Assembly: GCA_028712125.1 (NCBI GenBank)
Contig: JAQTQS010000004.1
Coordinates: 1 to 33,525, forward strand
Direction of reading: 5' to 3'
DNA: 33,525 bases
Source: Candidatus Altarchaeota archaeon
GTDB lineage: Archaea > Altiarchaeota > Altiarchaeia > IMC4 > SCGC-AAA252-I15
Both the position numbers and the translations under genes were made by a program. Within the stretch, counting starts at the first letter, position 1. Every line of letters begins with the position of its first letter. Below the pieces are notes generated by a model that worked only from the letters and a program-made list of their open reading frames with translations, made no database searches and had not been told where the DNA came from. Below, piece by piece: positions 3,665 through 25,839 of this stretch.

Positions 3665-3666
3665 AC

Positions 3667-3730: not shown

Positions 3731-3732
3731 CG

Positions 3733-5679: not shown

Positions 5680-6399
5680 TCACCAGTCGTCCGTCGTCAG
5701 GAACCGCTCCTTCCTGCGCTCCTCAGCCCTCCGGGCCCGCAGTCTGTCTGCGTATACTGCATGCAATACGCGGTCTTCGGCCGCTTCCAGAGGAAGGTCT
5801 GAACTGGTCCTCCATTCGTGGATTTTCATCTGGCCCATGCCGTGCAATTCGTCTATGAGCTCGCTTCTGGGCGGGAAGTCTATGTGCATGTACTTTCCCG
5901 GCTCCTTGTCCCAGCCGTTTACCCAGTTCTTTTCGGCCAAAATACCGGCATCGTTGAACAGGTACGCGCCGCCATGGTAGGAGAAGAACGTCCTGTCAAG
6001 CGTAACGCCGGCTTCGAGCAGCTCCCTCATCTGGCGGACGGGCATAAAGCCCTTCTCCACGCATCCCTCGAGCTTGCCGACGGTTCCGGCAAGCGACACG
6101 GCCGGCTGCTGGATTGCATCGCACCTCCGGGCATAGGCGATAGTGTCCAAGGTCACGGAAAAGGCGTCGTCATCGCCCTTCACCCTGTCCAGAACCTTCA
6201 TGACACGCTCCTTCAGGCCGGCCCTGCCGCCCAACGCGTCAAAGAGCGTCTCGAAACGCCTGGAACGCTCAAGCCTCACGGCCCTCGCCCGAAGCTCGTC
6301 CTCGAGCATGCGGCCCTGCTCAACCTTGTCGAACAATCCCGGCTGGGATAATGTGACCTTAAATGCGCCGGCAGGATGCTGCTGATGCTTTGCCTTCAT
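5680..6399 (-). CDS. Hypothetical protein
   Basis: 239-aa ORF filling the interval convergent with lysA; no recognised motif. Confidence 0.6.
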   Translation of the reverse strand: MKAKHQQHPAGAFKVTLSQPGLFDKVEQGRMLEDELRARAVRLERSRRFETLFDALGGRAGLKERVMKVLDRVKGDDDAFSVTLDTIAYARRCDAIQQPAVSLAGTVGKLEGCVEKGFMPVRQMRELLEAGVTLDRTFFSYHGGAYLFNDAGILAEKNWVNGWDKEPGKYMHIDFPPRSELIDELHGMGQMKIHEWRTSSDLPLEAAEDRVLHAVYADRLRARRAEERRKERFLTTDDW

Positions 6400-6487
6400 T
6401 AAAAAGAAATGCGAAAGACGAGGATAAATAGGAAGCGCGGCGCGGCAGGATTATTTTGACGGCCTTCCTTTTTAACAGGGGGATTAA

Positions 6488-8080
6488 ATGGTTAAGGGTA
6501 TTGCCATGGTCTGCCAGTCTAGGGACGTCGCCTTCGAGCGTTTGGCTGTGGGAAGTTTTTTCCTGATTTTTTTATTAATCGGCCTGGAGGTGTTCAGGGA
6601 CTACGGCCTTTCGACTGATGAAGTGTTTAACCGGGAGAAGGGCTTTTATTCGTTTTACTATGTCTTTAATGGGGATAACTCTTTGCTTACTTATTACAGG
6701 CGCGATTACGGCGTTGCCATTGAGCTGCCGCTGGTCATCATTGAAAAGGCCATGGGGCTTTCGGTCTTGAGGGATGTTTACTTCATGAGGCACCTTTGCA
6801 CCTTCCTCTTCTTTTACGTCTCGGTCTTCTTCTTTTACCTGCTGTGCAGGCGTTTTTTCGGAAGCTGGAAGCTCGCTTTACTCGGCTGCGTCTTTCTGGT
6901 GGTCAGCCCGAGGATATTCGCGGACTCTTTCTACAATTCAAAGGACATCGGCTTCATGTCCGCATTGCTCATATCGACTTACACATTCTTCCGCTTCCTA
7001 GAGCATAGGAGCCTGCCGTGGCTGGTCTTCCATGCCTTTGCGTCAGCCTTCGCCATCTGCACACGGATTGCGGGATTGTTTATAGCCCTTCTTTCCGCCC
7101 TGTTCTTGGCGCTTGATGGCTGCAAAAAACGCACTAATGAGGAAGGCATGCCAATCCACATCAGCCTTATTTCTTACGCCATGCTATCTTCCTTATTCGT
7201 CATGATGCTTTGGCCTTACCTTTGGAGCAACACGGCCAGCCATTTCGCGTATGCCCTTAAGAGTTCAGTAGAATTCACAAGGTTTAATGAGACGTTCCTG
7301 TACCGGGGGGAGTATATAGACGTCTATAACCGCCCATGGCATTACATCCCGCTGTGGATGGTTATCACAATCCCGGTGACGTATACCGCGCTTTTTATCA
7401 TCGGGTTTTCGTCATCTGTTTTTTCATTGGTTAAAAACCCTTTGGGATTCCTGGCCGACCGCGGGAAAAGGGATGAGTTGATTGTAATACTGATGTTTTC
7501 AATGCCCGTTATAGCGGTCTTGGCGCTTAATCTCGCAGTCTACGGAGGCTGGAGGCACCTGTTTTTCATCTACCCCTCATTCGTCATATTGGCCTTGATG
7601 GGCTTACGCAGGGCCTTGTCCTTCATCCGGAGCCGGTTCAGCGGCAGGGCGTACAGGCTGGCCATGGCGTCTTTTTTGGCAGTGATACTGCTTGACGTCT
7701 CAAGCGTGGCCGCATTCATGGTCCGAAGCCACCCTTACCAGAACGTCTACTTCAACCAGCTTGTTGGCGGCGTTCAATCAGTGAAAGGGTATTTAGAGTA
7801 CGACATGTGGGGGATTTCCTACAGGGAGGCGATTGAATACATCATGGAACGCGACAAGTCGGAATTAGTTGAAATTTCTGTAGATAACTGGCCGGGCGGA
7901 GTAAACCAGCTTATCCTGAAACCCGACGACAGGAAGAGGATACGCTATGTAGACCAAAAATACGCGAAATACTTCCTGACCAACTTCAGGTGGGGATATG
8001 ATTACAACTACACGAATGAATTTTACGCGATTGAGGTCGACGGGGCCAAAATCATGGTCGTCTATAAATTAAGGGATTAG
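6488..8080 (+). CDS. Polytopic membrane glycosyltransferase, PMT/ArnT (GT39)-like
   Basis: 530 aa; N-terminal DYGLSTDEVFNREKG (acidic motif in first luminal loop), many TM segments, GGWRHLFFIYPSFVILALMGL and C-terminal soluble region. Confidence 0.65.
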   Translation: MVKGIAMVCQSRDVAFERLAVGSFFLIFLLIGLEVFRDYGLSTDEVFNREKGFYSFYYVFNGDNSLLTYYRRDYGVAIELPLVIIEKAMGLSVLRDVYFMRHLCTFLFFYVSVFFFYLLCRRFFGSWKLALLGCVFLVVSPRIFADSFYNSKDIGFMSALLISTYTFFRFLEHRSLPWLVFHAFASAFAICTRIAGLFIALLSALFLALDGCKKRTNEEGMPIHISLISYAMLSSLFVMMLWPYLWSNTASHFAYALKSSVEFTRFNETFLYRGEYIDVYNRPWHYIPLWMVITIPVTYTALFIIGFSSSVFSLVKNPLGFLADRGKRDELIVILMFSMPVIAVLALNLAVYGGWRHLFFIYPSFVILALMGLRRALSFIRSRFSGRAYRLAMASFLAVILLDVSSVAAFMVRSHPYQNVYFNQLVGGVQSVKGYLEYDMWGISYREAIEYIMERDKSELVEISVDNWPGGVNQLILKPDDRKRIRYVDQKYAKYFLTNFRWGYDYNYTNEFYAIEVDGAKIMVVYKLRD

Positions 8081-8124
8081 AGTGCGAGTCTTTGCTTGCC
8101 GCGTGGTTCGTACGGCTTAGCTGA

Positions 8125-8176
8125 TGTAAACTATTTTTTACATTTATATACACGTACGTGTAATATATTTTTTACA
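8125..8176. promoter_or_regulatory. Two direct operator-like repeats TGTAAACTATTTTTTACA / TGTAATATATTTTTTACA flanking a TATA box
   Basis: 8125-8142 and 8159-8176, 34-bp spacing, with TTTATATA at 8143-8150 and palindrome CACGTACGTG at 8151-8160 between them. Confidence 0.6.
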
Positions 8177-8195
8177 TAATCAGAGGTGACAAAAA

Positions 8196-8621
8196 ATGCT
8201 AGGAAAACCAGAATGGTTCCAAAGGAGGAAATACGGCGGATGGGGCCTGACCCCAAAGACATGGCAGGGATGGCTTTACATCCTCGTCATCATAGCCCCC
8301 CTGTTCGTGCTGCAAATGCTCGGCGCGAACGGCGAAACAATATTCGCAGCCAACCTCGCCTGGATACTAGTATTCGGCACGGACATGCTCGACATCATGC
8401 GAAAACTCAAAAAAGACGAGCGCGAAACCCAGATAGAAGCAATGGCCGAACGAAACAGCGCATGGGCCATGGTCGCGATAATAGCGATTGGAGTAGGCTA
8501 CCAGGCCGCATCAAGCGCAGCAAGCCAGACGCTGCAGGTAGACCCCTTCCTCATAGCGGCCCTCATCGCCGGCGCGCTGGTCAAGGCGGCGTCAAACATA
8601 CACCTTGAGAGGAAGATGTGA
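8196..8621 (+). CDS. Small membrane protein, DUF2178-like
   Basis: 141 aa with predicted TM segments, paired with a downstream Xre-type regulator. Confidence 0.6.
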
Positions 8622-11731: not shown

Positions 11732-12571
11732 CTAGATTACTCCCTTCCAGTTTTTTATCGCGAGCTCGTAGGACTCCGGCGTGCCCGTGTCAAACCACTG
11801 GCCGTCGAAGTGGTAGCCGTACAGCAGGCCTTTTTTAGCAAGTTTCGGGAAGACGTCCTTTTCCATCATCGCCCGTCCGGCCGGGATGTATTTCAAGACT
11901 TCCGGCTCCAGCAGGTAGACGCCGGCGTTAATAAGGCTTGATGGCTCTTTGCCCGGCGCGGGCTTTTCTATGAATTCGAGTATGTTGTCGCCCTTCAGCC
12001 TGGCGACGCCGAACCTTGAAGGGTCTGGCACGCCCGTCAGTGCGATTGTGGCAATCCCCTTCTTCTCCTTGTGGAACGATGCGAAGTCCTTAAGGTCGAT
12101 GTTGGCGAGGACGTCGCCGTTCAGCATCAGGAATGTGTCGGTCAGCTTGTCCTTCAGGAAGTTCAACGGCCCTGCGGTCCCGAGCTCATGGTCCTCCTCG
12201 GTGTAGGTTATGTTGACGCCGAACTTCGAGCCGTTGCCGAAATACTCCCGGATTTTGTCCTTCATATAGCCGACTGAGAACACAATCTCCTGCACCTCGT
12301 ACTTTCTGAGCAGCTCGACCAAATGCTGTATCAGCGGCCTGCCCTGTACTGGAATCATGGGCTTGGGGATTTCATAGGTGAACGGGCGCATACGCGTCCC
12401 CTTCCCGCCGGCCAATAGCACCGCGTGGCTGATGCTCCGCGTGCTTAACGCGCGGCTCAACAGGACTTCGATTGCGTGCGATCGGTTGCGTATCCTGATG
12501 TTGTCGACCATGCCGTCGACCTTCTTCAGCATGTCGTCCCGGAGCGTTATTGTAAGCCTTTCCCTGCCCAT
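11732..12571 (-). CDS. Sugar-phosphate nucleotidyltransferase with N-terminal ribbon-helix-helix domain
   Basis: MGRERLTITLRDDMLKKVDGMVDNIRIRNRSHAIEVLLSRAL (RHH/CopG-like) fused to HAVLLAGGKGTRMRPFTYEIPKPMIPVQGRPLIQHLVELL (NTP_transferase). Start 12571 preferred over 12652. Stop directly abuts the phosphomannomutase start. Confidence 0.88.
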   Translation of the reverse strand: MGRERLTITLRDDMLKKVDGMVDNIRIRNRSHAIEVLLSRALSTRSISHAVLLAGGKGTRMRPFTYEIPKPMIPVQGRPLIQHLVELLRKYEVQEIVFSVGYMKDKIREYFGNGSKFGVNITYTEEDHELGTAGPLNFLKDKLTDTFLMLNGDVLANIDLKDFASFHKEKKGIATIALTGVPDPSRFGVARLKGDNILEFIEKPAPGKEPSSLINAGVYLLEPEVLKYIPAGRAMMEKDVFPKLAKKGLLYGYHFDGQWFDTGTPESYELAIKNWKGVI

Positions 12572-12690
12572 TTTCAAAAATGTATGATAAGGTAAGGTAA
12601 TATATGAAAGAGGGGATAAATAAATCCGCCAGACCATGCAGGAACGCAACACGATGCCGTTAATAAACTCATCCTACCCTTGAGTATAAC

Positions 12691-14340
12691 ATGCCAACAA
12701 CGGTAGCAGACCGGCCCCGCAAGGCCGCGGTCGTCAGGCCTCCTGCAGGCCAGGTGGCTGAAATGCTGTTGAAGGCGGTTGAAGCAGGCAGAAGCCCGCT
12801 TGAGTTTGTTTCGGAGCCGCTTAAGCGCCTGCACACTGGCAAAAGGATTCTCATAATAGACGACTTCGAGCCGACGGCGAAAGACGTTCAGAGCGACCTT
12901 ACGCGTTTCTTCCCCGCGTCAATGGGGAATGCCATAGAAATCGAGTCTAATCCCCTGAATGCCGTCGCGCGCATGAAGGTAACGAAACAGGCAGGCAGGC
13001 CCTACGATGCCATAATACTCGACCTTCGCATGCCCGGCAAGAACGGCGATGAATTGCTGCGCGACATAAGCAAGGCGGATTTGCTCTGCCCGGTCGTGAT
13101 ACATTCCGCAAGCCATGCAAAAGCGATACAATGCCAGCTCCTCCCCAAGATAGACGAGCTTAGGACTGACGAGGTCGAGAAAAGGATTGCAGAGCTCGGA
13201 AGGCTTGATGCCATGCTTTCCGACGTCAAGACGCCGCAAGGGCTGAAGGACCTGGCGAAGACCCTCGCAAGAAAATCCGACGGCGTGCCCGCGCGCTTCG
13301 TATTGAAATACGGCCCGGGCTACTCGCCCGAACTGCTCTCGCGCTCGCTCGAGGCCGTTATGGTGACCGGAGGGGAGACTGATTGGACCGGCTTCCAGCA
13401 GGCGGTTGCTAAATTCAAGCCCGTCTTGTTTGACGCCGGCGACAGGACCGAGTACATCGAAGAGCTTTCGGAGATGACGAAGTTCCTGGCGAAGAAAACG
13501 AGGGGGCTCAGGCGGAAGGTTGTGGCCGAGGTGCCGGATGTAATGAAAACCGAGGCTTGGAGGGATTTTAACAAGGCTTTTATGGAGATTACAAGCGGGA
13601 ATTATTCAACTGAAAAGCTCGCCGAGGACAAAGACGACCTTGGGGCGGCAAGGAGGCACAATCTGGCGGGATTATTCGGGTGGGTGGGTGATACGGCAAA
13701 GGCATTGACGCGCTCGCCAGACAGAGAAGGTATTAATCCAGTCTTCGATGGCAGATCCGACCTTGTCAAGGAGATATTCTCCTTCAAGGAGATGGCGAAC
13801 AAGCTTGCCCACATGCTCTACATGCCCCGGTGCCTCAAGGGAGAGACTCATGTAACCGACCTGCATTTCTTCCTTGAATGCACCAGGGATTTCTCCAGAT
13901 GCGACCACCGGTTGTCTGAGGAAAAGCTTATGATAAAATCACCGGAAATGCTGGGGCAGCATGTCATCGAGCAGCCTATAATGAACGCGCTGCAGGCCGT
14001 CAAGGGAAGGGATGGCGGGAAGGTGGAGGTCGTATTGGACAAGCGCAGGGTCTCGGAGCTGGACTATAAATCCCAACAATACTTCGAAAAACTCGGCCTC
14101 AAGAGGGATGATTATGTCGCAGAAGTCAGCGTGAACGACAACGGTCCGGGAATAGCGCCTGAGAATCTGGAGAGGATGTTCGAGTCAGGGTTCACGACCC
14201 GCAGGGGCGGGACGGGATTCGGATTGTATTTCCTGAAGAGGTACATCGGAAAGCTTGACGGCACTTGTAATGTCGAAAGCGAAGTTGGGAAAGGCACGAG
14301 ATTCCACATGTACTTCAGGCTGGCCGAGCCTGAGAAGTGA
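12691..14340 (+). CDS. Hybrid receiver-kinase: N-terminal REC domain, C-terminal HATPase_c
   Basis: 549 aa; REC: KRILIIDDFEPTAKDV...YDAIILDLRMPGKNG...PVVIHSASH. HATPase: IEQPIMNALQAV (N box), VNDNGPGI (G1), TRRGGTGFGLYFLKRYI (G2). Confidence 0.88.
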   Translation: MPTTVADRPRKAAVVRPPAGQVAEMLLKAVEAGRSPLEFVSEPLKRLHTGKRILIIDDFEPTAKDVQSDLTRFFPASMGNAIEIESNPLNAVARMKVTKQAGRPYDAIILDLRMPGKNGDELLRDISKADLLCPVVIHSASHAKAIQCQLLPKIDELRTDEVEKRIAELGRLDAMLSDVKTPQGLKDLAKTLARKSDGVPARFVLKYGPGYSPELLSRSLEAVMVTGGETDWTGFQQAVAKFKPVLFDAGDRTEYIEELSEMTKFLAKKTRGLRRKVVAEVPDVMKTEAWRDFNKAFMEITSGNYSTEKLAEDKDDLGAARRHNLAGLFGWVGDTAKALTRSPDREGINPVFDGRSDLVKEIFSFKEMANKLAHMLYMPRCLKGETHVTDLHFFLECTRDFSRCDHRLSEEKLMIKSPEMLGQHVIEQPIMNALQAVKGRDGGKVEVVLDKRRVSELDYKSQQYFEKLGLKRDDYVAEVSVNDNGPGIAPENLERMFESGFTTRRGGTGFGLYFLKRYIGKLDGTCNVESEVGKGTRFHMYFRLAEPEK

Positions 14341-15855
14341 CTACTCCTGTCTTTTCGCGTCAAGGTTCAGAAGAATCCTCATCTTCAAGCCGCCTTTCTT
14401 TGGATTCTCGACGCTGTGTATTGCAACACCGGCTTCTTTAGCCCCGCCCAGCTTGTAGATAAAGTCCCCGTAGGCCTTGTCCACGCTGGCGGGCGACGGA
14501 GCGTCGTCCGTGACTTCAACGAGGCAGCAGCGGCCGCAGCCAATGCCCTGAAGCCTCGAGCGCTCGTCTTCCCGGAGCATCTTGCTTCCGGCGATGTCTT
14601 TGGTGTAGTCTATCCTGACTTTCATGCTCGAACCAGGATTGTCTGCCACGCGCTTTTTCGCGACCTGCACGGGCACGCTGACCAGCTCTTGGAGCGACTG
14701 CTTGTCGCCGTGGACCACAAGGTTTTCATAAGGCGATTCGACCGTTCCGGCACCCCCCACCAGTTCCCTGACGAAGACTGGCACGTTCACCTCTGGCTTG
14801 TAGTGCTCCCGGTAGCCTGCGAAGAGCTGGGATATCATCCGGTAGGGACCCCGCACGGACTCGTTCCACAGGGCCACGGCATCCTTGAACTTTGGATTGC
14901 GGGCGTATTCTCCGACGCCTTCCATTGCCAGCCTTTCAGCGTCCGGGCCGTTGATGAATACCATGAGGTTGGCGAGCCTGTGCAGGCGGTTGCCGGTTTC
15001 CTCCGGTTTTCCGGCGTATGTCGTCCTGAAGGATACGCCGCCGAACTCCCTGAGGGTTTCCACCACGCGGCCTTGGCTCCTTTTCCACCATGCGGTCTTT
15101 TTAAAGCCCGGGAATTCCCTGCCCATTTCCTTTAGGATGCCTGAAACCTCGACCGCGCAGTTGTGCGTCTCTTCAGCAATCTTGTGGGTCACCTCGGCGG
15201 AAAAGTCCCATTTCTCAACGAGAGCGGGGTTGAACTCCCGCAGAAACGCGTCGGTGTCGCCCAAACCCTGCCGGCCTACGAGCATGGCGACGTCCAGCAT
15301 GTCGGTCAGGCTTGAAAGCGTGCCGTCCAGCTTGTCGTGGAACAGGACGGGCCTTGGGAAATGCTTTCTGTTCCTCGCGTGCCAGTCTTCCATCGCCTTC
15401 CGGGTCCGGAATTCATCGAACTGCTTTGCAATCCCAGACACCACGGGGTCCATCATGGAGGCCGTGTTTATTACGACGGGCACGAATGCGCCGGCCGTGT
15501 GTATGTCCTTCATCAGCTGGGCGCCCTGCAACCCCTCCATGAAGAGGTCGAGGACGAGCGCGTCATACGGCCTGCCGGCCTGCTTGGATGCGATTATTCT
15601 ATCCCTTGCTTTGATGGGGTCGGTCTCGTATTCCACGGCGTTGCCCGAATCTTCCGGATAAATCTTGGACAGGTCGGCGTGCAGCCTTTTGCAGGTGGAC
15701 GCCATGTCGTCAATGATGAGAATCCTGCGTTTCTTGTGGAACATCTCCCTCCGCTCAGGGCTCAGGCTGTTGTAGACCAAGTCCTGAGGATTATAATCCA
15801 TCAAAGCATCCCTATGCGGCGCGGCCGCCCTGGCTTTCAACTGCGTGGTTGCCAT
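14341..15855 (-). CDS. Paralogous REC protein with degenerate HATPase-like C-terminus
   Basis: RRILIIDDMASTCKRLHADLSKIYP...YDALVLDLFMEGLQG...PVVINTAS; C-terminus VEVTDDAPSPASVDKAYG...GGAKEAGVAIHSVEN lacks intact G1/G2 boxes. Start 15855 (MATTQLK) preferred over 15891 from operon spacing. Confidence 0.8.
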   Translation of the reverse strand: MATTQLKARAAAPHRDALMDYNPQDLVYNSLSPERREMFHKKRRILIIDDMASTCKRLHADLSKIYPEDSGNAVEYETDPIKARDRIIASKQAGRPYDALVLDLFMEGLQGAQLMKDIHTAGAFVPVVINTASMMDPVVSGIAKQFDEFRTRKAMEDWHARNRKHFPRPVLFHDKLDGTLSSLTDMLDVAMLVGRQGLGDTDAFLREFNPALVEKWDFSAEVTHKIAEETHNCAVEVSGILKEMGREFPGFKKTAWWKRSQGRVVETLREFGGVSFRTTYAGKPEETGNRLHRLANLMVFINGPDAERLAMEGVGEYARNPKFKDAVALWNESVRGPYRMISQLFAGYREHYKPEVNVPVFVRELVGGAGTVESPYENLVVHGDKQSLQELVSVPVQVAKKRVADNPGSSMKVRIDYTKDIAGSKMLREDERSRLQGIGCGRCCLVEVTDDAPSPASVDKAYGDFIYKLGGAKEAGVAIHSVENPKKGGLKMRILLNLDAKRQE

Positions 15856-15856
15856 T

Positions 15857-16354
15857 TTAGAGTATCGTTGACCTGAACTGGCTTTTGTCAAGCATTATCC
15901 GCTCCCTCTTAACGCCGAGGTCTGTAAGGACCTTTACGGCCTTCTCGGCCCTCGGGCTGCCTTCAATGCTGTCAAGTATGAACGTTTTTTCCGGCCCGTC
16001 CATTGTGACGTTAAACCTTACGCTTTTCCCGGCTATAACCATGGGGTCGGCGTCATTTGACAGCCCTTCAGTCTCCATCAGGTACCTGTTTATCAAGCGG
16101 AGGTTCCTCCCATGAAAGCCGCTAGTGGTGGAGAGTACTCGCGTTTTGTCGCCTATGAAAATCCTACCCACGTCGGCCGGCCCCAGACGGTCGAACCTCT
16201 CGCCGATGACCACGATATCGCCCTTCTGGCCCTGGCCTTCGAAGATGTCGACAGGCTCATTGTCCACGGTCAGGGACGTGATGGGCATTCTCTTCGGAGG
16301 CTCGAACTCGCCATGATGTCCTCCTCCGCCATTCTGTATCGTCTTCTCTACCAT
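15857..16354 (-). CDS. Tandem paralog family, member 1 (unknown function)
   Basis: MVEKTIQNGGGG...VDIFEGQGQKGDIVVIGERFDRL...RVLSTTSGFHGR...MDGPEKTFILDS...AVKVLTDLGVKRERIMLDKSQF. Confidence 0.8.
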   Translation of the reverse strand: MVEKTIQNGGGGHHGEFEPPKRMPITSLTVDNEPVDIFEGQGQKGDIVVIGERFDRLGPADVGRIFIGDKTRVLSTTSGFHGRNLRLINRYLMETEGLSNDADPMVIAGKSVRFNVTMDGPEKTFILDSIEGSPRAEKAVKVLTDLGVKRERIMLDKSQFRSTIL

Positions 16355-16357
16355 CGC

Positions 16358-16852
16358 TTACCTCCTCTTGAACTGCGAGGGGTCGAACCTTATCCTGTCT
16401 TTCGAAACGCCCAATTCATTCAGCATCGCAAAAACCTCAACTGCTTTGGTGTCGCCGGGCTTCAAGTCTACTGTGAAGACCAAATCCGGTCCGTCAAAGC
16501 CTGCGTCGAACCGGATGCTCTTGAACATGAGATCTTCCAAGTCAGGCCGCCTGATGCCCTTTTCCCGCGCGTAGCTGTCTATCAGGCATGCTGCCGCGGG
16601 ATGGTCTACGCCCCGGCTGGATAGGAAGCGAAAGCCCGCCCATGGATAGATTACGCCCTGCCTCGGGCCTTCCATCCCATCAGGCTTTTGGCCGATTACC
16701 ACAATGTCCTTATCGCCTCCAAGGCCTTCATGTACGCTCCATCTTGTATTGGAAGCGCCGACAATGATTTCAGTGACGGGCTTAAGGTCAGGGAGCTTTG
16801 GCGCAGCATGCCTCTGCCCCAGCCCGCCGTCCTGTATGGTCTTTTCAGTCAT
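16358..16852 (-). CDS. Tandem paralog family, member 2
   Basis: Start 16852 gives MTEKTIQDGGLGQ...VHEGLGGDKDIVVIG...RFLSSRGVDH...FDGPDLVFTVD...LNELGVSKDRIRFDPSQF; the tracked ORF start at 16930 would overlap member 3. Confidence 0.8.
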   Translation of the reverse strand: MTEKTIQDGGLGQRHAAPKLPDLKPVTEIIVGASNTRWSVHEGLGGDKDIVVIGQKPDGMEGPRQGVIYPWAGFRFLSSRGVDHPAAACLIDSYAREKGIRRPDLEDLMFKSIRFDAGFDGPDLVFTVDLKPGDTKAVEVFAMLNELGVSKDRIRFDPSQFKRR

Positions 16853-16856
16853 CCTG

Positions 16857-17348
16857 CTATCCAACAACCAGCGAATGGAATTCCCGCGGATCGAATTTAA
16901 TGTGTTTTTTATCAACGCCAAGGTCTTCAAGAACCTTCGCAGCCCTCAAACCCTTTTCATCGTCGGGCTTGCTATCTAGGCTATAAATCCTGTCCGGTCC
17001 TTCCAGGCTAAGATTCACCCTTACACCTTTTATCTGCGCTTGCATGAAGTCCCAAAGGCCGTCCAAACCTTTCATGCGCCCATACTCGGCTATCTGGCTT
17101 GAATTGCGGGTGTGAGTCCCCTCGCTTATGGAGGACAATATGCGGTCCTTGCCTACGGCGTACGCGCTTATGATGTAGGCCGGCTTCAATTCATCCAGCC
17201 TGAATCCGATGACTGTGATGTCCCCACCGCGGCCTTGGTTTTCATACACCCTGGCGCCCCTTGAAAGCTGGGTGACTGCCTTTGACTCCGGAAGCTTGGG
17301 CGTGTCTTGCCCCCACATTCCGCCGTCTTGAATCGTCTTTTCGGTCAT
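16857..17348 (-). CDS. Tandem paralog family, member 3
   Basis: MTEKTIQDGGMWGQ...VYENQGRGGDITVIG...RILSSISEGTHTR...LEGPDRIYSLDSKPDDEKGLRAAKVLEDLGVDKKHIKFDPREF. Confidence 0.8.
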   Translation of the reverse strand: MTEKTIQDGGMWGQDTPKLPESKAVTQLSRGARVYENQGRGGDITVIGFRLDELKPAYIISAYAVGKDRILSSISEGTHTRNSSQIAEYGRMKGLDGLWDFMQAQIKGVRVNLSLEGPDRIYSLDSKPDDEKGLRAAKVLEDLGVDKKHIKFDPREFHSLVVG

Positions 17349-17353
17349 CTTTC

Positions 17354-17860
17354 TTATGCTATCACTATCGGCGGGAATTCCTTCGGATTGAATTTTATCA
17401 TTTTCCTGTTCACGCCAAGGTCTTCCAGCACCTTTGCGGCCCTGACTCCGGCGGGATTGTTCGGCTTGCTGTCAAGCGTGTACGTCCTGTCCGGCCCGTC
17501 CATGCCGAGTTTCACCCTGATGCTTTCCTTTTGAACCTTCTGCCGGTACCATAGGCCTTTCAATTCTTTCCGATGCGCGTATTCTTCTATCTGCATCGCG
17601 CAGCGCATGTGCCCCGGCTCGTTTGAGGATGAGATGAAGCGGTTCTTGCGGTCGGTGTGCACGCTCACTATATAATCCGGTTCAATTTCTTCCAGACGGT
17701 AGCCGATTACCACGATGTCTTTTCTTGGACCCTGGTTCTCGTAGACCATGACGTCGCCTGAAAACCACATTTTCGGAAGCCTTGTGATTGCCTTAGACTC
17801 CGGCATCTCAGGCTCTTCATGCCTTTCACGCCCTCCGGCTTGCCTCGTCTTTCCCGCCAT
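17354..17860 (-). CDS. Tandem paralog family, member 4
   Basis: MAGKTRQAGGRERHEEPEMPESKAIT...VYENQGPRKDIVVIG...RFISSSNEPGHMR...MDGPDRTYTLDSKPNNPAGVRAAKVLEDLGVNRKMIKFNPKEF. Confidence 0.8.
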   Translation of the reverse strand: MAGKTRQAGGRERHEEPEMPESKAITRLPKMWFSGDVMVYENQGPRKDIVVIGYRLEEIEPDYIVSVHTDRKNRFISSSNEPGHMRCAMQIEEYAHRKELKGLWYRQKVQKESIRVKLGMDGPDRTYTLDSKPNNPAGVRAAKVLEDLGVNRKMIKFNPKEFPPIVIA

Positions 17861-17861
17861 T

Positions 17862-18419
17862 TTAAACCATTACCTTCGGCTTGAATTTGCCGGGGTTGTA
17901 TTCAATGCTCTTCCTGTCTATCCCAAGGTCTACCAGCAATCCGGCGGCCTTTCTGGCCTTCGGGTCGTTCGACCTGCCGTCTATTATGAATGTCTTTTCA
18001 GGCCCGTCCATCTCGACAAGAAGCCTTGTGCTGTTGTTCGCCACATGCTGGAATAAATCGAAGGATTGTCTGAAAGGCGTTGTGCCTCCTGAAATCCCTT
18101 GCTCTGCCGACTTCGCGCGCATGTAATCGCATATCAAGGCTGAAGCCCGTGTGTGGTGCAGCCCGTGGGCGGATATGAAGCGCCGGCCGCCGTGCTGGAA
18201 AACGCAGACATTGTCGCTTGATGTAAGTTTGTCAGGCATCTTGCCGACGGCGATGATGTCCTTCTTTTTAGAGCCCAGCCCTTCAAAGGCCGTTACTTTT
18301 ACGCCCTCTTCTTCGGCGAAAGCGCTTTGAAACCTGTAGGATGTCACATGCTTTGATTCAGGGAATTCCGGCTCGTCATGCCGCTGCCTTCCGCCGCCCT
18401 GCCTCGTCTTTCCCGCCAT
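17862..18419 (-). CDS. Tandem paralog family, member 5
   Basis: MAGKTRQGGGRQRHDEPEFPESKHVT...FEGLGSKKKDIIAVG...RFISAHGLHHTR...MDGPEKTFIIDGRSNDPKARKAAGLLVDLGIDRKSIEYNPGKF. Confidence 0.8.
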   Translation of the reverse strand: MAGKTRQGGGRQRHDEPEFPESKHVTSYRFQSAFAEEEGVKVTAFEGLGSKKKDIIAVGKMPDKLTSSDNVCVFQHGGRRFISAHGLHHTRASALICDYMRAKSAEQGISGGTTPFRQSFDLFQHVANNSTRLLVEMDGPEKTFIIDGRSNDPKARKAAGLLVDLGIDRKSIEYNPGKFKPKVMV

Positions 18420-18435
18420 CTTCCGTTTAATTCGC

Positions 18436-18912
18436 CTATGCCTCTCTCGCGCTTAGTATCTTCGGGTCGTGCCGTATGCTTTCTTCGCCAACGCCCAATG
18501 CTTTCAGAACTTCGGCCGCTGTCTTGAACTTATAGTTGTCTTTAGGGCGTTCGAGGTAGAACACCCTGTCTGGACCGTCGAACCCGACGTTGAACCTGGC
18601 GGTCTCTTCGAGCAGTTCCCAGTGATCCGGCGGCTTGGCCCCAACATCCCGCAGGCGGCGGAGTACGGCCATACCGCTTTCAGCGTGCGTCGTCCCCGCC
18701 GATGAGACGTACCATTTCCCCTTCCACAACCCCATGAAGCCCGTCGCCGAGTCGGCCATTTCTTGCGGTTTTTTTCCCACGAGGACGACGTCCTTGGGGT
18801 CCACCTTAATGTCGAACTGGAATCCGGGAGGAAGGCTGCCCGCATCCTGAGGGCCGGCAATGCGAGCCTTATTGGGTTCATGCTCGCCCGGCCGTCTTGT
18901 CTTATGTGCCAT
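18436..18912 (-). CDS. Tandem paralog family, member 6 (diverged)
   Basis: MAHKTRRPGEHE...DPKDVVLVGKKPQEM...WYVSSAGTTHAE...FDGPDRVFYLERPKDNYKFKTAAEVLKALGVGEESIRHDPKIL. Confidence 0.75.
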   Translation of the reverse strand: MAHKTRRPGEHEPNKARIAGPQDAGSLPPGFQFDIKVDPKDVVLVGKKPQEMADSATGFMGLWKGKWYVSSAGTTHAESGMAVLRRLRDVGAKPPDHWELLEETARFNVGFDGPDRVFYLERPKDNYKFKTAAEVLKALGVGEESIRHDPKILSAREA

Positions 18913-18928
18913 TCTTTAAAAGGGGGGT

Positions 18929-18954
18929 GTTTAGTATACGGGCTTTTTGTGTTA
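18929..18954 (-). promoter_or_regulatory. Shared promoter-like motif upstream of member 6
   Basis: Plus-strand gtttagtatacgggctttttgtgtta; 22/26 identical to the motif at 19516-19541, at the same distance from the ATG. Confidence 0.6.
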
Positions 18955-18980
18955 TTATACTCCCAATGATGGCGGCTTTC

Positions 18981-19499
18981 CTATTTCGGCTTGAATTGGT
19001 TGGAGTCGAGGCGTATTCGGTTCCGGTTTATGTTGATGTCTGCCAGGACTGATGTTATTTTCTCTTCTTTTGCATCGCCATGTTGCATGTCCAGTATGAA
19101 CACGTCATGCAAGCCTTCCCTGACGATGCTCACGCGGACTCTTTCGGGGCGTATCTTCGCCGATGCCGCGATTAATGTGCCCTCTCCCAAGACGCCCTTT
19201 TGGAGGAGGTATCTGGCAACCAGCCCTGACGCCCCTATTCCCGACCCCTCCTCGCTCTTCGCCCGGGATATGACGCGATGGCCTTGCCCGACGTATATTG
19301 CCAGATGGTCTCCAGCGCGAAGCAAGTCGGAACGGCATCCTATCGTGGTTATGTCCCCTGAACGGCCCGCTCCTTCGTAGACTTGGAAATGCTCGCCGTG
19401 GTGGATTACTTCTTTGAGCTGTATTGACGGCGGGAGGCCGGGTCCGGGCGGCTTGCGCCCTTCCATTCCTCCGCCCGGTTGTACTGTTGTAGTGCTCAT
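18981..19499 (-). CDS. Tandem paralog family, member 7 (most diverged)
   Basis: MSTTTVQPGGGMEG...VYEGAGRSGDITTIG...RVISRAKSEEG...HDVFILDMQHGDAKEEKITSVLADININRNRIRLDSNQF. Confidence 0.75.
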   Translation of the reverse strand: MSTTTVQPGGGMEGRKPPGPGLPPSIQLKEVIHHGEHFQVYEGAGRSGDITTIGCRSDLLRAGDHLAIYVGQGHRVISRAKSEEGSGIGASGLVARYLLQKGVLGEGTLIAASAKIRPERVRVSIVREGLHDVFILDMQHGDAKEEKITSVLADININRNRIRLDSNQFKPK

Positions 19500-19515
19500 T
19501 TACTTGACGCTAGCC

Positions 19516-19541
19516 GTTTAGTATACGGATTTTTAGTGTAA
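19516..19541 (-). promoter_or_regulatory. Shared promoter-like motif upstream of member 7
   Basis: Plus-strand gtttagtatacggatttttagtgtaa; see 18929-18954. Confidence 0.6.
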
Positions 19542-19665
19542 AAACATGGCTGGTATTGATGCATTTCATGCCGGCCTGCATGCGGGAAATGCAAGTTATG
19601 CCACCATAAAAGCCGGTTGCGGAATGTTTTATCCTGCCGCGCTTAAATAAAATACGCGCATTAAC

Positions 19666-20055
19666 ATGGACAAGAGCAAGTGGGCTGTCGCTATCGTGCT
19701 GGCGAGCACGCTGTTGACTTCGAGCGGCCAGATTCTCCTCAAGATGGGGTCGGGTAATCTTAGCCTAGATTTGATTGCGCAATTGTCTAATCTTCCTTTG
19801 CTTGCCGGCTGGTTTTTGTACATTGTCGGGGCGGTCATGCTTATCGTCGCGTTGAAGTACGGCGATTTGTCAGTGCTTTATCCGATATACTCACTGAATT
19901 TCGTCTGGGTCAGCATCCTTTCGCCATATATCTTCGCGACCGACTCGATGAATACCGTAAAGTGGGCGGGCGTGGTCGTAGTCGTCCTCGGCGTAAGCTG
20001 CGTCGGCATAGGGAGCGCGAGGGCCGCGGCGCGGCAGCGGGAGGCTGGGAGATGA
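19666..20055 (+). CDS. Small 4-TM DMT-superfamily membrane protein, subunit 1
   Basis: MDKSKWAVAIVLASTLLTSSGQILLKMGSGNL...GDLSVLYPIYSLNFVWVSILSPYIF: EamA/SMR-like pattern. Confidence 0.75.
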   Translation: MDKSKWAVAIVLASTLLTSSGQILLKMGSGNLSLDLIAQLSNLPLLAGWFLYIVGAVMLIVALKYGDLSVLYPIYSLNFVWVSILSPYIFATDSMNTVKWAGVVVVVLGVSCVGIGSARAAARQREAGR

Positions 20056-20408
20056 ATGCAGAGCCTTGGGCGGTTGCGATGATAATCGTCGCGAGCCTGC
20101 TGGGGGCGTTCGGCTCGATATACCTCAAGAAGGGCTCAGGACGGCTTGAGTTCTCGCCAAGAAAGCTCGCAGGCAACCGCGACCTTATCTACGGATTCCT
20201 CCTGTACGGCCTCTCGTCCCTCTTCTTCATCGTCGGCCTGAAGGGCGGCGAGCTTTCAGTCCTTTATCCCCTGGTGGCCTTGAGCTATGTGTGGATTTGC
20301 ATCCTATCTGTGAGGATACTTAAGGAGAGTATGGGATTCTGGAAGTGGCTGGGCGTCGTCCTCATAGTCGCGGGCGTAGGCCTTATCGGCATGGGGGGCG
20401 CAGTATAG
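20052..20408 (+). CDS. Small 4-TM DMT-superfamily membrane protein, subunit 2
   Basis: ATG overlaps the upstream TGA (ATGA). MNAEPWAVAMIIVASLLGAFGSIYLKKGSGRL...GGELSVLYPLVALSYVWICILSVRIL. Start 20052 preferred over 19962. Confidence 0.75.
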   Translation: MNAEPWAVAMIIVASLLGAFGSIYLKKGSGRLEFSPRKLAGNRDLIYGFLLYGLSSLFFIVGLKGGELSVLYPLVALSYVWICILSVRILKESMGFWKWLGVVLIVAGVGLIGMGGAV

Positions 20409-20422
20409 CTTTGCTCCTTTTT
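20407..20422 (+). repeat. Left terminal inverted repeat
   Basis: AGCTTTGCTCCTTTTT, exact reverse complement of 26929-26944. Confidence 0.9.
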
Positions 20423-20496: not shown

Positions 20497-20928
20497 TTAC
20501 TTGTTTTGTTTACAATAACCATAACCCGCACCAAAACCCCCTGCAAAAATTACTAGGATGGTCATTATCTGGTTTAATAATTCTGTATTTTGGTCCTTCA
20601 GTAAATAAATCAAAGTAATAATAAATATCATAGCTAGTACCAATGTACAAAATACATATTTTCTAATAGAAAATCCATGTTGTGAGTGTATCTCCTGTTG
20701 TCTGCCTGCAAGGTCTAATGTTTTGGATATATGCTCTGGACTAACTTTTTTTAATATTTCGAGAGGTACTGGTCCTGATGATGCTTGCATCATAAAAGAC
20801 ATAACTTCTTTTACTTCTTTAGGAAGGTCAGGTGCGTCTATACTATCTGGATTCTTAGATTCTCCGTTATTAACAACTTCAACTAATTTATTTTCTTCAA
20901 CCACATTTGGTTTATTATCTTGGGCCAT
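20497..20928 (-). CDS. Two-TM membrane protein, DUF2335-like
   Basis: 143 aa; SSGPVPLEILKKVSPEHISKTLDLAGRQQEIHSQ followed by two hydrophobic segments resembles the DUF2335 layout. Confidence 0.5.
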   Translation of the reverse strand: MAQDNKPNVVEENKLVEVVNNGESKNPDSIDAPDLPKEVKEVMSFMMQASSGPVPLEILKKVSPEHISKTLDLAGRQQEIHSQHGFSIRKYVFCTLVLAMIFIITLIYLLKDQNTELLNQIMTILVIFAGGFGAGYGYCKQNK

Positions 20929-20929
20929 A

Positions 20930-21157
20930 TTAACGAATATTGCTGAAAGACGAATCTACTCTTTTAAATGAATCTATTAAATTATGTTCAATTAGTGAAG
21001 CGGTCATAGTGAGTATAATCATTTTCGTTAGGTACTGGTCATTGGCAAAGTTAGAAGATTTGATACTTTTACTTATCTCTAAAAAATTTTCTATCATTTC
21101 ACCTTCCGTTTTTTTACAATAGTATTTTGACATCATTTTACTATAATTACATTTCAA
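20930..21157 (-). CDS. Small hypothetical protein
   Basis: 75-aa ORF with its stop adjacent to the next gene's start; same strand, likely co-transcribed. Confidence 0.45.
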   Translation of the reverse strand: MKCNYSKMMSKYYCKKTEGEMIENFLEISKSIKSSNFANDQYLTKMIILTMTASLIEHNLIDSFKRVDSSFSNIR

Positions 21158-21209
21158 TTATCTTATTAGTGCATTTATTCGTTTAAAAGTATGTGTAGTG
21201 CCTAATTTT

Positions 21210-22418
21210 TTATAAATCAGGCTTAAAATCTGGTTTAATCTTTAATTCGTGCATTTCTTGGATTAGTACACAGATATTATGGGCTATCAACTTACATAGC
21301 ATTTCGTTTTCCTGTGCTTTGTAGTTTTTGCTTTTCAGTTTGTCGCCGAACTTTGCCTTTATCATGTTGAAAGCACTCTCAACATTCGAGCGTTGGTGGT
21401 AGTGTTGCATGAACTCATCACGGTTTAGCATGAAGTAGTGATACATGCGCTTCCATGTTACCGAACCCCTGCTTTTACCACCGTCTTTACTCTTGAACGG
21501 CAGGTAAGCGGTCGCTCCTAGTTCGTTGACTAGGTTGTAGTTCTCGCGGCTTGTATACGCCTTGTCTGCGACTACTTCTTTTATCGTAAACCCGCCGTTG
21601 TAGGCTTCGGTTAAAAGAGGGTTGAATTGTAGGCAGTCTGCGCCGTTTTCCGGCGTGATTTGTGCGGAAGCTATTACGTTGGTTTTCGTACCTACGAGGA
21701 TATGCGCCTTAACCCAATGGTGCTGTTTCTTTGTGCCGTGTTTTTCCACGCAATACTGGTTAAACTGAGTAGTCCTAAAACCGCTTGAATCAGGGGCGAA
21801 GGTCGTCTCAACACTCTTTAAAGGTAAGGCGGTTAGGGTTAGTAATTGATGTAGTAACGGAGTTATTTCCTCTCGGTTTAGGAACTTGTTTATGGCGTTG
21901 AAGTTCGGCACTTTGTTTAACTGCTCCTTCTGGCTGGCGTTCTTGTATAAGGTGTATGCCCTCCTGCTGGAAAGTTGCGAGTAAACCTTCTGTATAGAGC
22001 AGAATAAGCCGTCTCTAAGGGTTAATGGCTTACGCCCAATAAGGGAAGGGTCTCTAATAGGCTCTTCCACGTTTTCCACAAGGTCTTTCAACAGTTCGTC
22101 AAAGCTCGTTATCTCGCCGGTCTGAGCTTTGTTGTAAGCCTTCCAGTTTTGGGAATAGGTAACCTTCTTGGTTTCGGTTACTGTGGTGTTGCCCTGTGTG
22201 TCGGTGGTTTTCTGTATGGTGTGCATTACTGCGTAGGTGTGTTTGCATGTCAAATTTCTTGTCTGGCAATCTGGACAGTCGCATACATAACGTCCTCCCT
22301 TACGCTGGACAAAGTAATGCCCGCTTCCCCATTGTGCTGGAACAATCCAGCCGTGTTTTGTCTGTTCAAGACCGCCTTTCTCGGCGATTTGTATCCCCCG
22401 TATTTCTCGTGCTTCCAT
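21210..22418 (-). CDS. DDE transposase with N-terminal SWIM-type zinc finger
   Basis: 402 aa; CDCPDCQTRNLTCKH (SWIM-like CxC...CxH); candidate DDE: FAPDSSGF, VVADKAYTS, HQRSNVESAFNMIKAKFG. Confidence 0.85.
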   Translation of the reverse strand: MEAREIRGIQIAEKGGLEQTKHGWIVPAQWGSGHYFVQRKGGRYVCDCPDCQTRNLTCKHTYAVMHTIQKTTDTQGNTTVTETKKVTYSQNWKAYNKAQTGEITSFDELLKDLVENVEEPIRDPSLIGRKPLTLRDGLFCSIQKVYSQLSSRRAYTLYKNASQKEQLNKVPNFNAINKFLNREEITPLLHQLLTLTALPLKSVETTFAPDSSGFRTTQFNQYCVEKHGTKKQHHWVKAHILVGTKTNVIASAQITPENGADCLQFNPLLTEAYNGGFTIKEVVADKAYTSRENYNLVNELGATAYLPFKSKDGGKSRGSVTWKRMYHYFMLNRDEFMQHYHQRSNVESAFNMIKAKFGDKLKSKNYKAQENEMLCKLIAHNICVLIQEMHELKIKPDFKPDL

Positions 22419-22442
22419 CTTTGTTTTCCTCTACTTATATTA

Positions 22443-22513
22443 TATACTTATAAGTATATATACTTATCGGTATATAATAGAAACTATGGTGTTTATATAC
22501 CCATAAGTATATA
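22443..22513. promoter_or_regulatory. Three related TATACTTATAAGTATA-type motifs between the transposase and rightward genes
   Basis: Perfect palindrome TATACTTATAAGTATA (22443-22458), variant TATATACTTATCGGTATATA (22457-22476), variant TATACCCATAAGTATATA (22496-22513). Confidence 0.5.
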
Positions 22514-22543
22514 CTATTAACCGTTGAACATAGGTGATAACTA

Positions 22544-22708
22544 ATGACAAAATGCCCTAAATGTGGACACACATTCACGGAAGAACTAAAATGCCTACGG
22601 TGCGGACACAAATGGAAGCCTAGAAACGACAAACCTCCTACGGTATGTCCAAACCTAAAATGTAAAAGCCCATACTGGAATAAACCACGAAAAAAGCGTG
22701 ATGCGTAA
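22544..22708 (+). CDS. 54-aa zinc-ribbon protein (below ORF-track cutoff)
   Basis: Manual translation MTKCPKCGHTFTEELKCLRCGHKWKPRNDKPPTVCPNLKCKSPYWNKPRKKRDA*, with CPKC, CLRC and CPNLKC metal-binding pairs. Confidence 0.7.
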   Translation: MTKCPKCGHTFTEELKCLRCGHKWKPRNDKPPTVCPNLKCKSPYWNKPRKKRDA

Positions 22709-22718
22709 TTAGGGCAAG

Positions 22719-22856
22719 GTATTAAATACAACTGATATATACTTCTGTTTATCAACAGTATTAAATATAACTTCATACGCACCCACATGCACTATCTAAC
22801 CACCGATTTTGAAAAAATAATGCTTTTTAAGCATTGGATACTAGTATTAAATACAA
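22719..22856. promoter_or_regulatory. Three GTATTAAATAYAA repeats upstream of the wHTH gene
   Basis: 22719-22731 GTATTAAATACAA, 22758-22770 GTATTAAATATAA, 22844-22856 GTATTAAATACAA (2 nt before the ATG at 22859). Confidence 0.6.
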
Positions 22857-22858
22857 AG

Positions 22859-23344
22859 ATGGACTATAATGTAATCTTTCCAAGGATATTACCGCCCGAA
22901 AAGTATAGGTCATTATCTCCACAAGACCAAGAGGAGTATGTGGCAAGGAAGATTGAGGAAATTTTAATGATAAACACAAACGGGGTAACAATATCCGACG
23001 TTAGTTTGAATACCCCGTTTACTAGACCCACAATAATAAAGCATCTCGAAAAGATTGTCGCTACAAGAAAAGGGTATAAGATACGACGTGGTAGATTATC
23101 CATGTATTTTCCAAATGGGCGTGTTGTCCACCCGGAAGGTCAAATAGAAACCAAAACTGATACCGGAAATCAGTATCGCGCCACATTTTTGAACAATAAT
23201 TTTGGGGAGTTCATATACATTGAAGACCTAACTCCGAATACCGTATCTGGGGGTAGTATTCTTATTAAAAAACATGATTATCCTAATTTCCTAAACTTTT
23301 TGGATAGTGTGGAGGAGAACAGAAAAGCTATCAGGAATGAATAG
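22859..23344 (+). CDS. Putative winged-HTH regulator of the RM module
   Basis: EEILMINTNGVTISDVSLNTPFTRPTIIKHLEKIVATRKGYKIRRGRLSMYFPNGRVV resembles a wHTH; start 22859 preferred over 22787. Confidence 0.55.
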   Translation: MDYNVIFPRILPPEKYRSLSPQDQEEYVARKIEEILMINTNGVTISDVSLNTPFTRPTIIKHLEKIVATRKGYKIRRGRLSMYFPNGRVVHPEGQIETKTDTGNQYRATFLNNNFGEFIYIEDLTPNTVSGGSILIKKHDYPNFLNFLDSVEENRKAIRNE

Positions 23345-23349
23345 AAAAA

Positions 23350-24714
23350 ATGAAAACACTTCAAACTGAGGTTGAGTTCCAAGCTCATAAACTACAATCC
23401 AATAGCATTAAAGTTAATGGAAAGTTAGTTCACACACCCTTCGTAAATTTTGTACCTACCAGCAAGAATGATGTTGAACTACTGCTTGAAACTATAAAAA
23501 AAAGTAATGATGAACATTATTTTGTAGACCGAGTACAAGCCGTAACTTATAGAGTTTTCGATGAAGAACGAATATTCGGGGGACTTACGAAAAAGGTAAC
23601 ACAAAATCAATCACCGAGTCCAATAACTATTAAAAGTGATGAGAATGCATTACGGTACATGGATGGTTGGTTGAGATTCATTGACCCCTGCACAAATTTC
23701 TATCGTAAAAGATACAACGGATATACAATCGGATTTCTTAAGTTAAAATCCATTCCAAGTTACGTTGAAAGATACTTTCAAAAGCTTAACAGGTGTGAAA
23801 AGGATAGTTTAGATGAATGTCATTCTCAATTTTGGGAAACGCTCTCTAAACCTAATTCAGAGGGAATAACCCAAGAGACGCTATCTAAGTTAATCATCTG
23901 GAATGCGAAATTACAAAAGGACAAAAACGCAGATATTTTCTTACCTCCATCTCCCTTTATTTCTCTCACGTACTGCCAAGAGTTGGCAAAAATAGCTATT
24001 GAAGTCAATAAGGATGCTCAAGAGCTTGTATCATGGGATACTGCAACATTTTTCAATATAGACGCCTCAACGTTTCAAGATAAGCCAACAATCCAAATGA
24101 TTTTAAATTATATAGCCGATACAAATAATCCTACCCCCCTTACCGTGTTTAAGTTGAATGATGCTAAGAAACTATCTGATTTGACCTACGGGGAACATGC
24201 TCTAAACAATTTTGAGTTTTTCCTAAAAGTCCTCTATGAAATAAAAAATGATTATCCCCCAAAAATTATTGGATTATTGAATAGTGGTGGTTTTGGTTAC
24301 TGCCTACTAGGGGCTAAATTCGACTTCTTTACGGACTACATCTCTAATTATGAAGCGTATATACCCCCACGGGGTAAACGCCCAACTCATAGAGCTGCGT
24401 TACACCCTATAACACTAATACCTGAAAAATTTAACAATATTGTATCTGCTAGGAAAGAAGATGGTTATGTGCCGTTATCTTACCACCCGGATAAGAAGTA
24501 TCATAATACACAGCAATTCAATAAGGAATCGGTTGATGGGGACGTATGGGGTAAGGATGCTAAATTAGCTGGTATGTGCATGTGGAACATTTATACTCGC
24601 GAAGTAGTGGAGGCTATGCGAGATAAGAACAAGATAGACTCACTTTTCTTTGATAGGGTTCAACAGTCTGCATTTTCTCGTCTCGGACCTATTATACGAA
24701 AATTGAATGCTTAA
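23350..24714 (+). CDS. Unknown 454-aa protein in the RM operon
   Basis: Begins 5 nt after the wHTH stop and ends 17 nt before the methyltransferase start; no confidently recognised motif (KIIGLLNSGGFGYCLLGAKFDFFTDYISNYEAY...). Confidence 0.75.
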   Translation: MKTLQTEVEFQAHKLQSNSIKVNGKLVHTPFVNFVPTSKNDVELLLETIKKSNDEHYFVDRVQAVTYRVFDEERIFGGLTKKVTQNQSPSPITIKSDENALRYMDGWLRFIDPCTNFYRKRYNGYTIGFLKLKSIPSYVERYFQKLNRCEKDSLDECHSQFWETLSKPNSEGITQETLSKLIIWNAKLQKDKNADIFLPPSPFISLTYCQELAKIAIEVNKDAQELVSWDTATFFNIDASTFQDKPTIQMILNYIADTNNPTPLTVFKLNDAKKLSDLTYGEHALNNFEFFLKVLYEIKNDYPPKIIGLLNSGGFGYCLLGAKFDFFTDYISNYEAYIPPRGKRPTHRAALHPITLIPEKFNNIVSARKEDGYVPLSYHPDKKYHNTQQFNKESVDGDVWGKDAKLAGMCMWNIYTREVVEAMRDKNKIDSLFFDRVQQSAFSRLGPIIRKLNA

Positions 24715-24731
24715 CATTTAGGTACTATATA

Positions 24732-25835: not shown

Positions 25836-25839
25836 TTTC

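What the first reader, a model, noticed from the sequence alone, without database searches (positions are those of the whole stretch)
12691..19499. Candidate undescribed system: REC/HATPase pair plus seven-member tandem paralog operon
Seven consecutive minus-strand genes (15857-19499) encode diverged versions of one ~160-190 aa protein that I do not recognise. Shared signature: M-x-x-K-T-[IR]-Q-x-G-G tag; [VF]-[YF/H]-E-x-x-G-x(2-4)-D-I-x-x-[IV]-G; R-[FIV]-[IL]-S-[ST/A/R]-x(3-6)-H; [DE]-G-P-[DE]-x-x-[FY]-x-[LIV]-D; L-x-x-[LI]-G-[VI]-x-[RK]-x-x-I-x-x-[DN]-P-x-x-F. Gaps between most genes are only 1-16 nt, and the last gene is a REC protein (14341-15855) starting 1 nt after member 1. A second REC/HATPase gene (12691-14340) is convergent with it. 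Two signalling paralogs beside an expanded diversified family suggests a sensor/effector system in which the small proteins are interchangeable ligands, adaptors or outputs. Homology of the seven and the operon layout are seen directly; the functional link is inference.
Basis: partly seen in the sequence, partly recalled or inferred. Interest (0 to 1): 0.85.

Follow-up and report, generated by a model that had tools for sequence, protein, structure and literature searches.

The report
Tagged seven-paralog array with phosphorelay genes
In one archaeal genome, a 7-kb block absent from its nearest sequenced relative carries a histidine kinase, a dead-kinase partner and seven diverged copies of an otherwise unknown small protein that share one short N-terminal tag, which looks like a self-contained signalling cassette with plug-in parts of unknown job.

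Summary
Seven tandem minus-strand genes (15857-19499) encode diverged, truly homologous proteins (leave-one-out profile E 1e-17 to 1e-49) of a family with no match in Pfam, NCBIfam, PADLOC, PHROGs, PDB or fold libraries. It was found only in this genome (about 790 archaeal genomes by profile; about 85,000 genomes by a less sensitive pattern scan). Their N-terminal KTxQxGG tag is the best-conserved stretch of the alignment, yet it is predicted disordered: a shared docking-type peptide. The 'REC/HATPase pair' is unequal. 12691-14340 is an apparently complete REC-helical-DHp-CA kinase (Asp111, His323, N/G1/G2 boxes). 14341-15855 is its paralog, with Asp and His kept but the ATP-binding motifs lost, as in ChpT-type phosphotransferases. 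New evidence for one unit: in the same-genus genome ('Ca. Altiarchaeales' MAG) the two flanking genes lie about 30 bp apart, so the extra block holds exactly these nine genes. Two near-identical 24-bp promoter-like elements, found nowhere else in the genome, precede members 6 and 7 at the same spacing. Most likely: a lineage-specific phosphorelay cassette whose hub binds seven tagged client proteins. Physical link, signal direction and biochemical role are inferred; related kinases in the genus occur without the array.

The parts
12691..14340 (+). kinA: REC (Asp111) - ~180-aa helical region - DHp (His323) - CA (N-box QPIMNA, G1 DNGPG, G2 GTGFGL) histidine kinase, soluble
   Evidence: Pfam Response_reg and HATPase_c over cut-off; profile alignment puts His323 on the HDFNNLL His of CckA 5idj; Foldseek matches CckA and LvrB; motif positions; no hydrophobic segment
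14341..15855 (-). pkB: paralog of kinA; REC Asp103 and DHp-like His292 kept, ATP-binding motifs lost; candidate phosphotransfer or pseudokinase hub; ATG at 15855, 1 nt after member 1
   Evidence: 28.7% identity to kinA over 293 aa, E 2e-29; no HATPase hit in Pfam; G1/G2/N-box absent; alignment A2
15857..16354 (-). m1, array member 1 (165 aa), tag MVEKTIQNGG
16358..16852 (-). m2, array member 2 (164 aa), tag MTEKTIQDGG
16857..17348 (-). m3, array member 3 (163 aa), tag MTEKTIQDGG
17354..17860 (-). m4, array member 4 (168 aa), tag MAGKTRQAGG; 51% identical to m3
17862..18419 (-). m5, array member 5 (185 aa), tag MAGKTRQGGG
18436..18912 (-). m6, array member 6 (158 aa), most diverged, tag MAHKTRRPGE
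   Evidence: leave-one-out E 6.7e-18
18981..19499 (-). m7, array member 7 (172 aa), tag MSTTTVQPGG; lacks the conserved His and GP of the others
   Evidence: leave-one-out E 3.3e-25
18929..18952 (-). promoter-like element ACACAAAAAGCCCGTATACTAAAC, 16 nt before m6 ATG
   Evidence: 88% identical over 24 nt to the copy before m7; only these two sites match with 0-1 mismatch in the genome; same spacing to ATG
19516..19539 (-). promoter-like element ACACTAAAAATCCGTATACTAAAC, 16 nt before m7 ATG
12620..19640 (.). extra block relative to the same-genus genome G001, in which the flanking nucleotidyltransferase and SMR-transporter genes lie ~30 bp apart (approximate borders)
   Evidence: L170 5519-7146 against window 11733-12577 and 19660-20422

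Best explanation
A nine-gene, lineage-specific phosphorelay cassette. Shown by sequence: kinA is a soluble REC-DHp-CA kinase with all catalytic motifs; pkB is its paralog that kept the phospho-accepting Asp and His but lost the ATP-binding motifs, so at most it can relay or scaffold phosphate; the seven array proteins share an alpha/beta core and a disordered, strongly conserved N-terminal tag; the nine genes are present or absent as a block between conserved neighbours. Inferred: the common tag docks all seven proteins onto one partner, most likely the helical region of kinA/pkB, which have no PAS, GAF or membrane sensor of their own. The diversified cores then give the cassette several cytoplasmic inputs (fan-in; I rate this somewhat above fan-out to several targets). 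kinA phosphorylates itself on His323 and phosphate passes through the REC domains to pkB His292 and onward.
For: Block presence/absence between conserved neighbours. Operon packing and coupling of m1 to pkB. The tag is the most conserved 7-column window of the alignment (mean pairwise identity 0.65, against 0.24 for the linker and 0.30 for the core) with many synonymous codon changes, although the model calls residues 1-20 disordered (pLDDT < 50). A genome-wide search of the tag finds no other gene start with it in full. Kinase motifs and the CckA and LvrB matches. No PAS/GAF hit and no hydrophobic segment. Block codon usage fits the host core, unlike the neighbouring Dcm/Vsr island. Precedents: ChpT keeps the His but cannot use ATP (PMC3433190); LvrB is a kinase driven by its own REC (PMC13269768).
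Against: No direct evidence of binding. kinA-type kinases occur without an array next to them in G000:C36 and G001:C11 (the G001 copy lies at a contig end, so only its downstream side is known). The tag is degenerate in m6 and m7. The array core matches no known sensor or adaptor fold. kinA carries His-Asn where the C36 and G001 kinases have His-Asp, which may weaken autophosphorylation. pkB can be called degenerate only from its sequence. Polarity of the block (gain in G000 or loss in G001) is not settled by outgroups, where the two flanking genes are not adjacent within the 1.5 kb seen.
Confidence: 0.4

Rival explanations
1. Regulon without contact: kinA/pkB merely control or accompany an operon whose seven products do a separate cytoplasmic job (for example enzymes or stress proteins with different substrates); the tag serves folding, localisation or processing.
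For: Two near-identical promoter-like elements drive the array; kinA homologs live without the array; conserved polar residues of the core (Asp46, Ser75, Arg113 of m1 and a His kept in six of seven) could be a binding or active site.
Against: pkB is the last gene of the array operon with a 1-nt gap, which favours coupled production; all nine genes come as one block.
Confidence: 0.25
2. A multi-paralog assembly: the seven proteins build one heteromeric structure (ring, shell or filament), the tag being the polymerising or packaging peptide, and kinA/pkB regulate its assembly.
For: Seven same-family soluble paralogs in one gene cluster; shared N-terminal peptide more conserved than the core.
Against: Divergence to 19-38% identity for all pairs but one and a pI range of 6.3-9.5 fit poorly with interchangeable subunits; no similarity to known shell or filament proteins.
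Confidence: 0.15
3. A conflict-type array: diverged immunity or decoy proteins accumulated by arms race (a polyimmunity-like locus) beside a signalling pair.
For: Tandem, fast-diverging, lineage-restricted paralogs; a transposase and a Dcm/Vsr island lie within 8 kb.
Against: No significant PADLOC, Pfam or PHROG match; no toxin or effector gene in the block; codon usage is that of the host core, unlike the Dcm/Vsr island; a conserved tag is not expected of immunity proteins.
Confidence: 0.1
4. Chance neighbours: the array and the kinase pair are functionally unrelated and were brought together by rearrangement.
For: Kinase homologs occur without the array.
Against: Exact block of nine genes between neighbours that are adjacent in G001; 1-nt coupling of m1 to pkB; pkB and kinA are paralogs that abut each other.
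Confidence: 0.1

Closest known systems
LvrB-type Rec-controlled histidine kinases (PDB 8vc9; PMC13269768)
   Same: N-terminal REC, then DHp and CA, no membrane sensor; long Foldseek match to kinA
   Different: kinA has ~180 mostly helical residues between REC and the DHp His; archaeal; accompanied by a degenerate paralog and seven orphan proteins
Archaeal REC-HisK proteins (Galperin et al. 2018, PMC5847659)
   Same: N-terminal REC fused to a cytoplasmic kinase core, an abundant class that paper calls experimentally uncharacterised
   Different: That class carries PAS and/or GAF domains between REC and HisKA; kinA, pkB and the C36 copy have none detectable
ChpT / Spo0B histidine phosphotransferases (PMC3433190)
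   Same: Kinase-like protein with phosphorylatable His and a CA domain that cannot use ATP, as inferred for pkB
   Different: pkB has an N-terminal REC and the helical region of kinA; phosphotransfer untested
AF_1472-type archaeal response regulators (REC + HisKA without HATPase; PMC5847659)
   Same: REC plus DHp without a functional ATPase
   Different: pkB still carries a degenerate CA-length C-terminus and no PAS/GAF
CckA (PDB 5idj)
   Same: DHp-CA core aligns over 230 residues with the His in register
   Different: CckA has PAS domains and a C-terminal REC (general knowledge)

Membership tests
Rec-controlled histidine kinase (LvrB type), for kinA | N-terminal REC with phospho-accepting Asp | tested here: met
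   Pfam Response_reg 32.2 bits against cut-off 30.2; Asp111 in IILDL, acidic pair at aa 57-58
Rec-controlled histidine kinase (LvrB type), for kinA | DHp domain with conserved His | tested here: met
   His323 invariant in four homologs and aligned with the CckA phospho-His
Rec-controlled histidine kinase (LvrB type), for kinA | CA domain with N, G1 and G2 motifs | tested here: met
   HATPase_c 63.6 bits; motifs at aa 428-433, 483-487, 506-512
Rec-controlled histidine kinase (LvrB type), for kinA | Short coiled-coil alphaS helix joining REC directly to DHp | tested here: not met
   About 180 residues lie between REC and His323; the region models as several helices at low confidence
Archaeal REC-HisK (Galperin class), for kinA | PAS and/or GAF between REC and HisKA | tested here: not met
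   No PAS or GAF hit at E up to 1
ChpT/Spo0B-like histidine phosphotransferase, for pkB | Phosphorylatable His in a DHp-like hairpin | tested here: inconclusive
   His292 aligned with His323 of kinA, followed by Arg instead of Asp/Asn; transfer not testable here
ChpT/Spo0B-like histidine phosphotransferase, for pkB | CA domain unable to bind ATP | tested here: met
   No HATPase Pfam hit at E up to 1; G1, G2 and N-box patterns absent; sequence inference only
Known protein family for the seven array proteins | Match to any curated family, solved structure or fold | tested here: not met
   No significant hit in Pfam, NCBIfam (two members), PADLOC, PHROGs, PDB sequence, Foldseek PDB/BFVD (no E <= 0.001)
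Polyimmunity or defence array | Adjacent toxin/effector or match to defence or immunity families | tested here: not met
   No PADLOC or significant Pfam match; no other gene in the block

The most novel reading that the evidence does not exclude
A tag-addressed signalling bus: one kinase/pseudokinase hub reads seven interchangeable cytoplasmic client proteins, each carrying the same N-terminal docking peptide and a diversified binding core of a fold not yet described, inherited as a cassette.
Probability: 0.25. Interest if true: 0.8.

Novelty: new variant of a known kind. Interest (0 to 1): 0.52.

Why it matters
Archaeal kinases with an N-terminal REC were described in 2018 as abundant yet experimentally uncharacterised (PMC5847659), and their inputs are unclear. 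Here such a kinase, a degenerate partner and a seven-member family with a common tag come as one block, which makes the question 'what feeds a sensorless REC-kinase?' directly testable with nine soluble proteins. The array also offers an orphan protein family with a confident model (pLDDT 82.5) that matches no known structure.

Tried and rejected
Profile or DNA-pattern searches for the array family elsewhere: none in 394 relatives including the 28 other genomes of its class, 398 more archaea (this search had no positive control inside it), the pattern scan of ~85,000 genomes (would miss members as diverged as m2, m6 or m7), viral contigs, plasmids and phages, or the flanks of 80 loci with similar kinases. 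Weak Foldseek hits to ADF-H/cofilin-like folds recur but TM is 0.23-0.33 and E above 0.02: rejected. PF15635 toxin hit on m5 (E 0.048, below cut-off) and PDB 3kv1 (E 0.29): rejected as noise. Other tag look-alikes in the genome are short, inside longer frames or not homologous. An 8-bp direct repeat (TAAATAAA) at the block borders is AT-rich and expected by chance at about this frequency; not claimed as a target-site duplication. Similarity of neighbours in array order as a trace of stepwise tandem duplication: only m3/m4 supported (permutation P 0.058).

Full report
WHAT IS THERE. The seven array proteins (158-185 aa) are homologous beyond doubt: a profile built from any six finds the seventh at E 6.7e-18 to 8.9e-50. 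Pair identities are 19-51%, so apart from m3/m4 these are old or fast-diverging copies. Genes are packed with gaps of 1-16 nt, 68 nt between m7 and m6, and the REC gene follows m1 by 1 nt. Codon position composition and host-like codon usage show normal, long-resident genes, in contrast to the low-GC transposase/Dcm/Vsr region to the right.

THE TAG. Columns 4-10 (KTxQxGG) are the most conserved seven-column window of the whole alignment (mean pairwise identity 0.65; linker 0.24; folded core 0.30), with 37 synonymous codon pairs against 18 non-synonymous at the five key positions, so selection is on the peptide. The AlphaFold2 model of m1 (mean pLDDT 82.5) is confident for the alpha/beta core but has pLDDT below 50 for residues 1-20. 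A conserved, disordered N-terminal peptide followed by a variable linker is what a docking motif looks like (inference). Within the genome no other gene start carries the tag in full. The core gives no significant match to solved or viral structures.

THE TWO REC PROTEINS. kinA (12691-14340) has REC, a ~180-residue mostly helical region, DHp and CA. The profile of its family aligns with the CckA DHp-CA with the His in register, and Foldseek ranks CckA and the Rec-controlled kinase LvrB on top (the model itself is low-confidence outside CA and part of the DHp). pkB (14341-15855) is its paralog (28.7% over 293 aa) and keeps Asp103 and His292, but has no HATPase hit and lacks the N, G1 and G2 motifs. 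ChpT shows that such a protein can be a phosphotransferase (PMC3433190). Neither protein shows PAS or GAF at E up to 1 nor a hydrophobic segment.

THE BLOCK. G001, the only other genome of the genus held here, is 'Ca. Altiarchaeales archaeon M_DeepCast_200m_m2_220' (its contig C11 matches record VGJA01000011.1 in length and hit position). On its contig C3 the nucleotidyltransferase next to kinA (84% identical) and the SMR transporter pair next to m7 lie about 30 bp apart. In the window they are separated by 7 kb that holds kinA, pkB and the seven array genes and nothing else. This supports one unit, though gain and loss cannot be told apart from outgroups. Absence of the array family elsewhere makes gain the simpler reading.

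PROMOTER ELEMENTS. A 24-nt sequence ending in CCGTATACTAAAC precedes m7 and m6, 16 nt before each ATG, with unrelated spacers. No other site in the genome comes within two mismatches of its 18-base core. The position fits an archaeal core promoter of leaderless transcripts (general knowledge), so m7 and m6-m1-pkB are probably two transcripts under one control (inference).

DISTRIBUTION. The array family was found in 1 of 394 related archaeal genomes, namely its own, in none of 398 others, and not in the pattern scans. kinA-type full-length architecture is confined to the genus among the nine genomes examined for it: kinA, pkB and G000:C36 901-2559, plus G001:C11 2-1207. The C36 and G001 copies have no array beside them, so the kinases can work without it, while the array has never been seen without the kinases (one instance only).

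READING. I favour a phosphorelay cassette in which a kinase and a degenerate relay partner share seven tagged clients. Shown: catalytic motifs, their loss in pkB, tag conservation, block presence/absence, shared elements. Inferred: tag-mediated docking, phosphate flow, input direction. Literature found no description: no paper in the open library joins Altiarchaeota with histidine kinases.

Noticed in passing
L030 (G000:C36) 4830-5600, + strand: A bacterial-type ECF sigma-70 gene (Sigma70_r2 45 bits, Sigma70_r4_2 48 bits) in an archaeal genome, on the same contig as the third REC-DHp-CA kinase, a LeuRS and a ThiC-like gene; Sigma70_r2 matches over the curated cut-off also occur in four of 60 other archaeal genomes, two of them of the same family. 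Contamination of single contigs not excluded.
   Followed up: partly
L030 (G000:C36) 5705-8560, + strand: 951-aa orphan protein directly after the sigma gene, no Pfam match.
   Followed up: no
window 20497-26860: Second extra block relative to G001: transposase, orphan proteins, Dcm methylase and Vsr at low GC (down to 0.36) between the SMR genes and an epimerase that are neighbours in G001.
   Followed up: partly
L170 (G001:C3) 2499-4052: 517-aa protein present in G001 between genes that are neighbours in the window (RsmB/F methyltransferase and phosphomannomutase): the same chromosomal stretch holds different inserts in the two genomes.
   Followed up: no
L032 517-2298: Serine-rich, laminin-G-like protein with near-identical internal repeats and a run of unknown bases.
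   Followed up: no
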